This document shows, piece after piece, positions 1 to 6,076 of a DNA stretch of 64,000 nt. The DNA is taken from positions 1 through 64,000 of the forward strand of contig NZ_AUFE01000034.1 in assembly GCF_000426345.1 (NCBI RefSeq), given 5' to 3'. Source of the DNA: Cupriavidus phytohabitans. Its GTDB lineage: Bacteria > Pseudomonadota > Gammaproteobacteria > Burkholderiales > Burkholderiaceae. The position numbers were made by a program, and so were the translations under genes. Position 1 is the stretch's first letter; each line of letters starts with the position of its first letter. A model generated the notes under the pieces. It was not told the origin of the DNA, made no database searches, and saw only the letters and a program-made list of their open reading frames with translations.

Positions 1-181
1 TGGGCGCCACCGTCGCCGTCGAGGCAAAGCGCTGACCGAGGTGGCCGCGCAGGTACCACACCACGCCGCCTACGCGCTGCAACTGCGGCACGTACACGTT
101 GAGGTACATCCGGTCGATGCACTCGCTTTCGAGCACGACGTGGTCGCGTAGAACATCGCACACACTGTGTGGTACCGTCAT
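1..181 (-). CDS. N-terminal part of an unknown protein, cut by the left edge
   Basis: The reverse strand encodes 60 residues from an ATG at 181 to the window edge with no stop. The frame contains the stretch ECIDRMYLNVYVPQLQ and then RGHLGQRFAS. From memory this resembles the start of a recurrent family of roughly 400-500 residue unannotated proteins found in many high-GC bacteria, often in several near-identical copies per genome. I could not verify this and know no function for them. The start lies just downstream, in the direction of transcription, of a strongly folded leader (185-425). A short palindrome (161-172) overlaps the first codons. No Shine-Dalgarno is obvious, because the ATG sits directly after the closing helix of the folded region. 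A transposon-like or RNA-associated element is possible, but only the beginning is visible. Confidence 0.55.
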   Translation of the reverse strand, partial: MTVPHSVCDVLRDHVVLESECIDRMYLNVYVPQLQRVGGVVWYLRGHLGQRFASTATVAP

Positions 182-184
182 GTC

Positions 185-425
185 TGGCTCCGGTCGTCCA
201 CGGGGTCTTCGGACCCCATTGAGCTTCGAGCTCGTACATCGCTGGGCTTGTCCCAGCCGGCTCGACCGGAGCCACCTTACCCCCTCAGCGCTCCGCAGTC
301 ACCCGTACTACTCGTCGGTCTGAGGCAGAGCCTCGTTAGTAGTGAAAGTCGCATGATGATGCCACCTTCCGTCAGCCCCGGCCTAAAACGAACGCGTTGC
401 GACTGTTTGCGAGTTTTCCACTCGC
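185..425 (-). ncRNA. Multi-helix structured RNA leader before the left-edge gene
   Basis: Perfect complementary segments stack here. A 12-bp closing helix pairs 185-196 with 263-274. Inside it are three hairpins: 202-207/212-217 with a TTCG loop on the + strand, 221-225/229-233, and 241-246/252-257. The result is a four-way junction. Further out, 322-326/330-334 forms a hairpin enclosed by 307-312/338-343, 348-353 pairs with 398-403, and 409-413 pairs with 421-425. In addition 283-288 can pair with 320-325, overlapping one hairpin as a pseudoknot or alternative fold would. The orientation is inferred from the leftward gene that begins 4 nt past the closing helix. I do not recognise the fold as a known riboswitch or intron. 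It could be an element-end structure, a translation-control leader or a functional RNA. Confidence 0.5.
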
Positions 426-641: not shown

Positions 642-1403
642 ATGAAAGCATCATTCTCTCTCACTACCTGCGCCATCGCGGCCGCACTGCTGGCCGGCTG
701 CTCCGCTGGCATGCCCACCAACATCGACGGCATGGTGTCCGCCGGCTCCTCGCTGGCCAAGGCCGCGACGCTGAGCGACGCGGACGTCAAGAGCCTGTCC
801 GACCAGGCCTGCGCCGAATCGGACAAGACCAACAAGATCGCCGGGGCCAATACCACCTACGGCAAGCGCCTGGCCAAGATCATGAGCGGCCTGAATGGCA
901 GCAACGTGCCCAACGTCAACGCCAAGGTGTACCTGACCAGGGACGTCAACGCCTGGGCCATGGCCAATGGCTGCGTGCGCGTCTACAGCGGCCTGATGGA
1001 CATGATGACCGACGATGAAGTGCGTGGCGTGCTCGGCCATGAACTGGGCCATGTGGCACTGGGCCACACCAGGAAGGCCATGCAGGTCGCCTACACCGCG
1101 ACCGCCGCGCGTGGCGCTGCCGTGTCGGCAGGCAACGGCGCGGTGGCCGCGCTGTCGTCGTCGCAGCTGGGCGAGCTGGGTGAGAAGCTGATCAACGCGC
1201 AGTTCTCGCAGTCGCAGGAAAGCGCCGCCGATGACTACTCCTTCGACCTGCTGACCAGGAACAAGGCCAGCACGCGCGGCCTGGTGACGGCGTTCCAGAA
1301 GCTGGCCAAGCTCGATGGCGGCAAGTCGAGCATGTTCTCGTCGCACCCGGGTTCGGATGACCGCGCCAGACATATCGAGGAGCGGATCCGCAAGGCTTCG
1401 TAA
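642..1403 (+). CDS. M48-family metalloprotease lipoprotein, LoiP/YggG-like
   Basis: A 253-residue zinc peptidase predicted to sit in the cell envelope. The first 20 residues form a lipoprotein signal ending in LLAGC, so Cys20 should be lipidated. The zinc site HELGH lies at residues 133-137, and a downstream ESAADDY segment supplies the third ligand, near Glu193. Length and order match the short periplasmic M48 family of E. coli LoiP (YggG), which degrades damaged or misfolded envelope proteins and is induced by stress. There is no C-terminal TPR extension, which separates it from BepA. The gene stands alone, followed by a strong hairpin terminator shared with the convergent uspA. The upstream region holds paired repeats that could control it. 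Confidence 0.9.
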   Translation: MKASFSLTTCAIAAALLAGCSAGMPTNIDGMVSAGSSLAKAATLSDADVKSLSDQACAESDKTNKIAGANTTYGKRLAKIMSGLNGSNVPNVNAKVYLTRDVNAWAMANGCVRVYSGLMDMMTDDEVRGVLGHELGHVALGHTRKAMQVAYTATAARGAAVSAGNGAVAALSSSQLGELGEKLINAQFSQSQESAADDYSFDLLTRNKASTRGLVTAFQKLAKLDGGKSSMFSSHPGSDDRARHIEERIRKAS

Positions 1404-4095: not shown

Positions 4096-5682
4096 ATGGC
4101 TATCACGCTGCCCGCGGGCATGAAGATTACCGGCGAAATCCTGCCGGCCTACGAAGATATCCTCACGCCGGAAGCCCTGGCCCTGGTAGACAAGCTGCAC
4201 CGCGCCTTCGAGCCGCGCCGTCAGGAACTGCTGGCCGCGCGCGTCGAGCGCGCCAAGCGCCTGGACGCCGGCGAAGTCCCCGATTTCCTGCCGGAAACCA
4301 AGAGCATCCGCGAAGGCGACTGGAAGGTTGCACCGGTGCCCAAGGCGCTGGAATGCCGCCGCGTGGAAATCACCGGCCCGGTCGAAGCCAAGATGGTGAT
4401 CAACGCCTTCAACTCGGGCGCTGACAGCTACATGACCGACTTCGAGGATTCCAACACCCCCAACTGGCACAACCAGCTGCAGGGCCAGGTCAACCTGAAG
4501 GCTGCCGTGCGCCGCACGCTGACCCTGGAATCGAAGGGCAAGCAATACAAGCTGAACGACAAGATCGCCACGCTGCAGGTGCGTCCGCGCGGCTGGCACC
4601 TGGACGAAAAGCACGTCACCATCGACGGCAAGCGCGTCTCGGGCGGCATCTTCGACTTCGCGCTGTTCCTGTTCCACAACGCCAAGGAACAGATCGCCCG
4701 CGGCGCCGGCCCGTTCTTCTACCTGCCCAAGATGGAAAGCCATCTGGAAGCGCGCCTGTGGAACGACATCTTCGTGATGGCGCAGAACGAAATCGGCCTG
4801 CCGCAAGGCACCATCAAGGCCACCGTGCTGATCGAGACCATCCTCGCCGCGTTCGAGATGGAAGAGATCCTGTATGAGCTGCGCGAGCACAGCGCCGGCC
4901 TGAACGCCGGCCGCTGGGACTACATCTTCTCGTGCATCAAGAAGTTCAAGAACGACAAGGACTTCTGCCTGGCCGACCGCGCCAAGGTCACCATGACCGC
5001 GCCGTTCATGCGCGCCTACGCGCTGCTGCTGCTCAAGACGTGCCACTCGCGCGGCGCCCCCGCCATCGGCGGCATGAGCGCGCTGATCCCGATCAAGAAC
5101 GATCCGGAGAAGAACGCCATCGCCATGGAAGGCATCATCAGCGACAAGCGCCGCGATGCCACCGACGGCTACGACGGCGGCTGGGTGGCGCACCCGGGCC
5201 TGGTCGAGCCGGCCATGAAGGAATTCGTGGCAGTGCTGGGCGACAAGCCGAACCAGTTCGAAAAGCAACGTCCGGACGTGCAAGTGAAGGGCGCCGACCT
5301 GCTCGACTTCAAGCCGGAAACGCCGATCACCGAGCACGGCCTGCGCATGAACATCAACGTCGGCATCCACTACCTGGGCGCCTGGCTGGCCGGCAACGGC
5401 TGCGTGCCGATCCACAACCTGATGGAAGACGCCGCCACCGCCGAGATCTCGCGCTCGCAGGTGTGGCAGTGGATCCGTTCGCCGAAGGGCAAGCTGGAAG
5501 ACGGCACCAAGGTCACGGCCGAGCTGGTGCGCAAGCTGATCCCGGAAGAGCTCGCCAAGGTGAAGGAACTGGTCGGTGGCGACACCAAGACCTATGACCG
5601 CGCTGCCGAGATCTTCGAGCAGATGTCGACGTCGGAGGATTTCGCCGAGTTCCTGACGCTGCCGCTGTACGAAGAGGTCTGA
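4096..5682 (+). CDS. aceB: Malate synthase A
   Basis: A 528-residue enzyme that condenses glyoxylate with acetyl-CoA to malate and CoA, the second step of the glyoxylate bypass. Length and motifs fit the A isoform rather than the 720-residue G form. Visible are FEDSNTPNW in the acetyl-CoA/Mg region, the GPFFYLPKMESHLEARLWN segment, and the family signature region GLNAGRWDYIFSCIKKF (about 266-282). A good ribosome site, CAGGAG, precedes the ATG. Isocitrate lyase is not in the window. The upstream HAD gene is 50 nt away and a strong terminator follows the stop, so the transcriptional unit is HAD-aceB at most. Confidence in function is very high. Confidence 0.97.
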   Translation: MAITLPAGMKITGEILPAYEDILTPEALALVDKLHRAFEPRRQELLAARVERAKRLDAGEVPDFLPETKSIREGDWKVAPVPKALECRRVEITGPVEAKMVINAFNSGADSYMTDFEDSNTPNWHNQLQGQVNLKAAVRRTLTLESKGKQYKLNDKIATLQVRPRGWHLDEKHVTIDGKRVSGGIFDFALFLFHNAKEQIARGAGPFFYLPKMESHLEARLWNDIFVMAQNEIGLPQGTIKATVLIETILAAFEMEEILYELREHSAGLNAGRWDYIFSCIKKFKNDKDFCLADRAKVTMTAPFMRAYALLLLKTCHSRGAPAIGGMSALIPIKNDPEKNAIAMEGIISDKRRDATDGYDGGWVAHPGLVEPAMKEFVAVLGDKPNQFEKQRPDVQVKGADLLDFKPETPITEHGLRMNINVGIHYLGAWLAGNGCVPIHNLMEDAATAEISRSQVWQWIRSPKGKLEDGTKVTAELVRKLIPEELAKVKELVGGDTKTYDRAAEIFEQMSTSEDFAEFLTLPLYEEV

Positions 5683-5710
5683 GCAGGCCGCACTGCTCCG
5701 GCATGAACAA

Positions 5711-5740
5711 AACCGCAGCCTGATGGCTGCGGTTTTTTTG
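5711..5740 (+). terminator. Rho-independent terminator of aceB
   Basis: A perfect 10-bp stem, AACCGCAGCC at 5711-5720 paired with 5725-5734 around a TGAT loop, is followed by a T run (5733-5739). An A tract precedes the stem, so it may also serve the convergent gene at 5753-6076. Confidence 0.9.
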
Positions 5741-5752
5741 TGCGGCTTCCTT

Positions 5753-6076
5753 TTACAGCGGCCCGGGCAGCGTCTTCAGCCCGATCCAGAGCACCATGAT
5801 GATGACGTTGACCGGCACGCTGAGCGCGCCCGGCACGTAGAACAGCGCCGACAGCACCGGCGCGCACAGCACGCCTTCCACCACGCTGCCGACGGCATAG
5901 AAGAAGACCCCGCACCACAGCCAGCGCCGCATATATGTCGGCAGCCAGTGCGCACGCGCCTTGTTGAAATGCCAGGCGTGGGCCCGTTCGGCGTGGCTTC
6001 CCCGGCTGGCGTCGCGGAACAGCCAGTTGAAGAAAAAGTAGCGGTACAGCAGGGTGCGGAAGGCCAGCTCTTGCAT
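5753..6076 (-). CDS. Small conserved-looking membrane protein of unknown function
   Basis: A 107-residue protein starting MQELAFRTLLYRYFFFNWLF. I chose the ATG at 6076 because AGGAG lies six bases upstream; a longer frame to 6121 lacks such a site. The first half is aromatic- and arginine-rich (RYFFFNWLFRD, then HWLPTYMRRWLWCG). The second half has two hydrophobic segments, about residues 55-75 and 82-100, long enough to span the membrane. No catalytic motif is visible and I do not recognise the family. It is convergent with aceB and monocistronic. Confidence 0.6.
   Translation of the reverse strand: MQELAFRTLLYRYFFFNWLFRDASRGSHAERAHAWHFNKARAHWLPTYMRRWLWCGVFFYAVGSVVEGVLCAPVLSALFYVPGALSVPVNVIIMVLWIGLKTLPGPL

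What the first reader, a model, noticed from the sequence alone, without database searches (positions are those of the whole stretch)
1..425. Structured RNA-like leader directly before an unknown leftward gene: candidate new element
Seen directly: at least seven perfect helices within 240 nt. They comprise a 12-bp closing helix (185-196/263-274) around three hairpins that form a four-way junction, a nested hairpin and helix at 307-343, a 6-bp long-range helix (348-353/398-403), a 5-bp hairpin (409-425), and a possible pseudoknot (283-288 with 320-325). The closing helix ends 4 nt before the ATG of a gene with no recognised domain. From memory, proteins starting ECIDR-x-YLN recur in many high-GC genomes as unannotated multi-copy genes. 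Inference: the folded RNA and protein could form one mobile or RNA-guided unit, or the RNA could control translation of the protein.
Basis: partly seen in the sequence, partly recalled or inferred. Interest (0 to 1): 0.85.

Follow-up and report, generated by a model that had tools for sequence, protein, structure and literature searches.

The report
New jumping gene with folded leader
The window begins inside one end of an uncharacterised bacterial jumping gene, present in seven copies in this genome, whose transposase matches no known family and whose messenger RNA starts with a conserved fold that hides its own ribosome-binding site.

Summary
Window 1-339 is the 5' end of an uncharacterised ~1.8-kb insertion sequence: seven copies in this genome, none in 199 other genomes sampled from its family. 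Empty sites in relatives show insertion at CTAG, with nothing shared by both junctions beyond CTA. The leader (182-276, minus strand) is real: its covariance model hits directly before the gene in 38 of 59 loci (18 outside the seed) and its pairs covary. The closing helix holds GGAG six bases before the start codon in 35 of 40 leaders. The helices at 348-425 lie outside the element. The 536-aa relative of the protein has no family match. Its conserved D, QxE, KxYxK and RxE, each on a separate predicted strand, follow the order of the Rep_trans (pT181 Rep) active site; weak TBP-fold hits agree, but profile-profile comparison is not significant. Best reading: a single-strand or rolling-circle transposon with a Rep_trans-like nickase and a self-limiting leader RNA. 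RNA guiding is not supported: copies with an identical leader sit in flanks that share little beyond CTA.

The parts
1..339 (-). Left (5') part of the insertion sequence, cut by the contig start; the rest of the window's copy is inferred to continue on contig C39
   Evidence: seven identical copies that diverge after 339; C34 and C39 flanks adjacent in relative G201
2..181 (-). First 60 codons of the transposase gene (ATG at 181), cut by the contig start
   Evidence: 96.7% identical to the 536-aa P0001 over 60 residues
182..276 (-). Folded leader RNA, four-way junction, covariance model R1
   Evidence: 83.7 bits; the window is one of the 21 seed sequences
263..274 (-). Closing helix P1, 5' arm
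185..196 (-). Closing helix P1, 3' arm, 4 nt before ATG
188..191 (-). GGAG, Shine-Dalgarno-like, inside P1, 6 nt before ATG
   Evidence: reading as Shine-Dalgarno is inference
241..257 (-). Hairpin P2 (sequence varies between relatives)
   Evidence: single folds of relatives; not in the covariance model
221..233 (-). Hairpin P3
200..219 (-). Hairpin P4
322..334 (-). Terminal hairpin GAGGC-TCT-GCCTC of the left end; not formed in the minimum-energy fold of this copy
   Evidence: stems GAGGC/GCCTC 46 and GGGGC/GCCCC 23, no mixed stem in 69 stretches
335..339 (-). Left terminus CTAAC on the gene strand, with the CTA shared by both junctions at 337-339
340..425 (.).

Best explanation
This is the left end of an autonomous insertion sequence of about 1.8 kb. 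Shown by comparison: it is multi-copy, sporadic, has different left and right ends, inserts at CTAG with no more than CTA shared by both junctions, and carries a conserved folded leader directly before its single gene. Inferred: the protein is a transposase that works as a tyrosine nickase with a Rep_trans-like active site (D23, E253, E337 as metal ligands; Y327 as nucleophile between K325 and K329) on a TBP-like sheet, with a C-terminal winged helix for binding the ends. It nicks one strand at CTA at each end, releases or copies out a single strand, and joins it into a CTAG site, as IS91 and IS200/IS605 do with the unrelated HUH fold. Inferred: the leader is a cis-acting RNA whose closing helix hides the Shine-Dalgarno, so that transcripts holding the whole leader, such as those that read in from outside, are poorly translated and transposition stays rare.
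For: Mobility: seven identical copies at contig ends, six full right ends and one partial; 1 of 200 family genomes, this one. Target: CTAG alone between the flanks for C99/C73 in G201 and for C121/C21 in G131 and G200; CTAG after the C16 left flank in G201 and G204. Leader: 38 of 59 loci with an adjacent hit at E <= 0.001; two-sided changes in 14 of 20 pairs against 6.8 in shuffles and 9 against 5.8 on the alignment made without structure; mean z -4.94 over 39 leaders; GGAG in the closing helix of 37 of 40. Nickase: D23, Q251-x-E253, K325-x-Y327-x-K329, R335-x-E337 invariant or at least 90% in A8, kept in five full-length sister proteins, on strands 15-30, 246-260, 322-329, 333-340; same order as RepDE D46, R140-x-D142, R189-x-Y191-x-K193, R212-x-E214 (PMC4797284); viral-set top hit A0A2N9QVX7 is the TBP that PMC13107129 reports as a hit of the Rep_trans-related Rep-Arvir.
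Against: Profile-profile comparison with Rep_trans is not significant: E 0.52 with only a C-terminal stretch aligned, 0.68 and 0.41. PF02486 does not match in the own genome. Neither PDB search shows a Rep_trans chain in its 50 rows (of 628 and 557 matches) and none reaches E 0.001. Viral-set TM-scores are low (0.23-0.24). No tandem or circle junction in 10 genomes. 12 of 59 loci have the gene without a leader hit. The window's own empty site in G201 reads ATGG, not CTAG. No coordinates were given, so clustering of the proposed catalytic residues was not measured. No promoter inside the leader was looked for.
Confidence: 0.58

Rival explanations
1. The leader is processed into a guide or bridge RNA that binds the protein and picks target and donor DNA, as in IS110.
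For: Conserved structured RNA at one end, directly before the gene; a short shared core at both junctions.
Against: Flanks of copies with an identical leader share CTA(G), C after CTAG in 6 of 6 right flanks, and little else; in Caballeronia only A four bases before CTA, 13 of 18. Flank-leader complementarity at chance in 12 of 13 flanks. A mobile sister element lacks the leader. No IS110 match of the protein.
Confidence: 0.1
2. The conserved fold acts as DNA: a cruciform or single-strand structure that the transposase recognises, not an RNA switch.
For: Rep_trans origins use hairpins, and a Holliday-junction model is proposed for RepDE (PMC4797284, passages); the reverse strand also matches the model, at up to 37.2 bits.
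Against: GU/UG pairs outnumber the reverse-strand wobble letters CA/AC, 41 to 25, and the gene strand folds better than its complement in 31 of 39; the fold ends at the start codon and holds GGAG. These are modest. The fold lies about 60 nt inside the terminus.
Confidence: 0.2
3. The element is mobile as described but its transposase belongs to another catalytic class, and the Rep_trans likeness is chance or convergence.
For: No significant profile or PDB match; other conserved acids exist, e.g. E20, E114, D152, D154.
Against: Four motifs in the right order on separate predicted strands, kept in the sister proteins. A pattern written after seeing both families matches 20 of 20 family proteins of at least 480 aa and 4 of 9 Rep_trans proteins; of 555 other ORFs it matches 5, namely those 4 Rep_trans proteins and one sister protein that slipped my filter.
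Confidence: 0.27
4. The seven copies are a repeated gene or an assembly artefact, not a mobile element.
For: Every copy in this genome lies at a contig end, so none is assembled through.
Against: Precise empty sites in relatives; complete copies elsewhere, 1702 to 1884 bp in the seven that I measured.
Confidence: 0.02

Closest known systems
IS91 / ISCR family (rolling-circle insertion sequences)
   Same: No inverted repeats, no target duplication, functionally different ends (PMC5714925, passages); a short tetranucleotide site at one end (recalled)
   Different: IS91 uses an HUH transposase with two tyrosines; here no invariant HUH pair is seen, the protein matches no family, and the site is CTAG
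IS200/IS605 family
   Same: Hairpins near the ends and insertion at a short site without duplication (recalled)
   Different: HUH TnpA of about 150 aa (recalled) against a 536-aa protein with no such motif
Rep_trans endonucleases (PF02486: pT181 Rep, RstA, MOBT) and Rep-Arvir
   Same: Order and spacing of the active-site residues, catalytic residues on strands of a TBP-like sheet
   Different: No significant sequence relation; they are described as initiators of plasmid and phage replication and of conjugation, not as insertion-sequence transposases in the passages that I saw
IS110 / IS1111 with bridge or seek RNA
   Same: Structured RNA at one end beside a single recombinase gene, short shared core (recalled; PMC11208160 and PMC11208158 seen as listing only)
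   Different: No family match of the protein, and no sign of guiding in the flanks
Transposase leaders that hide the ribosome-binding site (IS10, IS50, IS200; recalled)
   Same: Shine-Dalgarno paired in the leader
   Different: Here a conserved four-way junction shared across phyla

Membership tests
Rep_trans (PF02486) | Match to the curated sequence model | tested here: not met
   no PF02486 match in the own genome nor in hmmscan of 28 relatives; hhalign not significant
Rep_trans (PF02486) | Motifs N' D, RxD, T/SxY/ExG, YxKxxE, W/LxRxE in this order (PMC5714925) | tested here: inconclusive
   D23, QxE, KxYxK and LRxE are there; motif II and the E of YxKxxE were not recognised
Rep_trans (PF02486) | TBP-like catalytic sheet with the residues on its inner face | tested here: inconclusive
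   predicted strands fit; TBP hits weak; inner face not testable without coordinates
IS91 / IS200-IS605 (HUH transposases) | HUH motif | tested here: not met
   H14 is the only invariant histidine in A1; no family match
IS91 / IS200-IS605 (HUH transposases) | No inverted repeats and no target duplication | tested here: met
   ends and empty sites
IS91 / IS200-IS605 (HUH transposases) | Single-stranded intermediate | not testable with these tools
   no read data; circle-junction pattern 0 of 10 genomes
IS110 / IS1111 | DEDD recombinase family match | tested here: not met
IS110 / IS1111 | RNA that base-pairs with target and donor | tested here: not met
   no excess complementarity in 12 of 13 flanks; one left flank reached 9 nt, as long in 1% of its shuffles
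Any Rfam 15 family | Covariance-model match | tested here: not met
   0 in the window at gathering, 0 at E <= 10 in 1-430

The most novel reading that the evidence does not exclude
A superfamily of bacterial insertion sequences, hidden behind 'hypothetical protein' and 'ArsR family' labels, moves single strands of DNA into CTA(G/A) sites with a TBP-fold tyrosine nickase, a catalytic fold so far tied to initiators of plasmid and phage replication and of conjugation. One branch adds a conserved leader RNA that hides its own ribosome-binding site and may be read by the transposase itself.
Probability: 0.5. Interest if true: 0.85.

Novelty: new variant of a known kind. Interest (0 to 1): 0.74.

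Why it matters
Insertion sequences are well catalogued, yet this widespread one has no domain model and no RNA family in the libraries searched, and no paper on it turned up in ten searches of an open library. If the Rep_trans-like reading holds, it adds a catalytic fold to those used for transposition and links transposons to plasmid and phage replication initiators. The leader is a clean, testable case of a conserved RNA that restrains a transposase. Many unannotated multi-copy genes would become recognisable mobile elements.

Tried and rejected
RNA-guided unit: tested by flank conservation and complementarity, not supported. Pseudoknot 283-288/320-325: partner in 12 of 68 left ends, not taken as conserved. 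Helices at 348-425: outside the element. Phage origin: no match in 50,697 phage records; in viral contigs 51 stretches matched a pattern and none was confirmed. Rep_trans by profile comparison: not significant. Circle or tandem junction pattern: 0 of 10 genomes; it asked for CTNCG loops, so it could have missed variants, among them the CTCTG loop of the window's own element. Defence system: one weak match (E 0.0041, residues 448-486) in one of two proteins. A sequence-only RNA model R2 was built and not used. Alignment A6 (453 columns) was replaced by A8. The structure models came without coordinates.

Full report
What is there. The window is the start of contig C34 of a 7.58-Mb, 260-contig genome. 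Window 1-339 occurs seven times there, each time at a contig end and identical where it overlaps, and the copies diverge right after ...GAGGCAGAGCCTCGTTAG. A search with the 536-aa relative P0001 finds the other side: six right ends that reach the last residue, one partial (residues 352-465), all at contig ends, and one diverged fragment beside the C28 copy. Over 200 genomes drawn from the family only this one matches. That is the mark of a recent multi-copy mobile element that breaks the assembly.

Empty sites. I searched 21 genomes (20 relatives and the own one) with five of the seven left flanks and compared the fetched regions with all seven left and six right flanks. Two pairs of flanks lie next to each other in a relative with CTAG alone between them: C99/C73 in G201, and C121/C21 in G131 and G200. 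The left flank of C16 is followed by CTAG in G201 and G204, but its right partner was not found. The window's copy pairs with contig C39; in G201 the four bases there are ATGG, so that relative does not show the CTAG. C78, C28 and C17 are unresolved: the first two were not in the query, and matches to C17 stopped short of the junction. So L-CTAG-R becomes L-CTA-ACGAGG...GAAT-CTAG-R. Whether the left CTA comes from element or target cannot be told.

Ends. On the gene strand the element starts CTAAC, a short hairpin sequence, then AGACCGACGAG or AGCCCGACGAG. In 69 distinct stretches (some are copies of one element or the same place cut differently) the stem is GAGGC/GCCTC in 46 and GGGGC/GCCCC in 23, never mixed. 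The hairpin is not part of the minimum-energy fold of the window's leader. At the right end CTTGAC or CTTGAT stands 41-43 nt before the end of CTAG in 17 of the 21 relatives that have it; 5 of 26 examined lack it, and the CTTGAC/GTCAAG stem is predicted in only some. Seven complete copies measure 1702-1884 bp. Upstream of CTA there is a preference for A four bases away: 13 of 18 in Caballeronia arationis, about two thirds overall.

Leader RNA. Leader 180-340 folds with z -4.68. A covariance model from 21 leaders was run over 72 sources. Of the 61 loci, 59 hold enough upstream sequence: a hit lies directly before the start codon at E <= 0.001 in 38 (18 outside the seed, some of them near-copies of seed sequences), at E <= 0.05 in 42, at E <= 1 in 46; one more hit is 194 nt away, and 12 loci have none. 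Weaker hits on the opposite strand of the same places reach 37.2 bits. On the model's own alignment 14 of 20 pairs have two-sided changes against 6.8 in shuffles, and slid versions do far worse; that alignment leans towards the structure. On the MAFFT alignment made without structure it is 9 against 5.8 (2 of 500 shuffles) and the covariation score exceeds all 500, but the number of pair types is not unusual (178 of 500). Many changes follow one split between two sequence types, so events are fewer than cells. Over 39 distinct leaders the mean z is -4.94 and 38 are below -2. GGAG stands in the 3' arm of the closing helix in 37 of 40 leaders, 6 nt before the start in 35 and 7 in 2; these 40 were picked by a model that includes that sequence. 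L039, which the model misses, has a closing helix of other sequence that still holds GGAG (read by eye). No Rfam family matches.

Protein. P0001 and P0002 have no Pfam match at E <= 1 and nothing better than 0.16 in NCBIfam or 0.17 in PHROGs. Among 28 relatives no Pfam or NCBIfam family recurs in more than two; the best single E is 0.003 in one member. PDB sequences give nothing below 0.077. AlphaFold gives mean pLDDT 83.1 for the whole protein and 80.9 for residues 1-350, poor around 265-311. PDB structure searches reach no E of 0.001: the whole model finds MarR-type winged helices best; the 1-350 model finds nothing convincing, with yeast TBP at rank 9, E 0.32. In the viral set the top hit is A0A2N9QVX7, E 6e-6 but TM-score 0.23-0.24; named TBPs stand at ranks 3, 8 and 10.

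Why Rep_trans. The conserved run K-x-Y-x-K...LR-x-E recalled the Rep_trans motif to me. PMC4797284 (abstract, passages, section 11) gives for RepDE the nucleophile Y191, flanking R189 and K193, metal ligands D46, D142 and E214, conserved R140, A144 and R212, and a TBP-like sheet with the metal ligands on separate strands. PMC5714925 (passages, section 10) lists the motifs. Here the residues are D23, Q251-x-E253-x-S/A, K325-x-Y327-x-K329 and R335-x-E337, on strands 15-30, 246-260, 322-329 and 333-340. Five full-length sister proteins keep them; the one measured is 25.9% identical. PMC13107129 (abstract, passages) tells a like story for archaeal Rep-Arvir: related to Rep_trans by structure only, marginal winged-helix hits in the PDB, and A0A2N9QVX7 among its viral TBP hits. 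Against it: hhalign E 0.52, 0.68 and 0.41, although the best path joins the same D and YxK/RxE motifs; motif II was not recognised. The pattern test was written after seeing both families; 5 of 9 Rep_trans rows miss it.

Sister elements. A 504-aa 'ArsR family' protein of Paraburkholderia phytofirmans (L169) has a near copy in P. elongata (L161): 1642 bp at 99.1% between unrelated flanks, edges CCTAAGCCGGACGAG and CTCCTTAGCGACTAA. So a sister is mobile too, with CTAA at both edges and no room for the four-way leader (about 75 nt before its ATG). Its Pfam matches lie in the winged-helix region only.

How it likely works. Shown: mobility, target, ends, conserved leader, GGAG in the closing helix. 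Inferred: tyrosine nicking of one strand at CTA at each end, a single-stranded intermediate, joining into CTAG; and repression of translation by the leader, strongest for transcripts that enter from outside. A promoter inside the leader, needed for the simplest form of that idea, was not looked for. The guide-RNA reading fails the flank tests.

Distribution and limits. By record title, the 61 loci include Pseudomonadota, Actinomycetota, Acidobacteria, Myxococcales, Planctomycetes, Chloroflexi, Rokubacteria and a Verrucomicrobia bin. Plasmids: 24 of 72,556 records, 17 of them Rhodococcus. Phylum sample: 10 of 398 genomes, own genome and sister groups included. Leader model: 9 of 10 chosen genomes. 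ISfinder and most subscription papers were not available, so the claim of novelty is bounded by the searches named.

Noticed in passing
L169:2372-4010 and L161:933-2574: A sister element labelled ArsR family regulator: 1642 bp at 99.1% identity in two Paraburkholderia with unrelated flanks, CTAA at both edges.
   Followed up: partly
G605 (Caballeronia arationis), loci L181-L208: 20 leader copies in one genome; the copies read break off near contig ends, which suggests a heavy recent expansion.
   Followed up: partly
L083 (G000:C28:80568-80747): A diverged C-terminal fragment of the same family (75% identity) lies beside one of the seven copies.
   Followed up: no
L168:2486-4102 and 4245-5906: Mycobacterium riyadhense plasmid with two distant family members in a row; the second ends in a long stem, CTTGAGGATT/GATCCTCAAG, then CGG-CTAG.
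   Followed up: partly
L039:100-202: A leader that the model misses, with a closing helix of different sequence that still holds GGAG just before the ATG.
   Followed up: no
left flanks of L061, L165, L048, L049, L166: Some actinobacterial copies share GTAGTA or GCAGTA right before CTA, so their target may be longer or the element may start earlier.
   Followed up: no
G000, right flanks L077-L082: C follows CTAG in 6 of 6 right flanks of this genome, but not in other hosts.
   Followed up: no
window 642-1403: The gene beyond the insertion encodes a lipoprotein-like protein with HELGH, as in M48-type peptidases (motif recalled, not searched).
   Followed up: no
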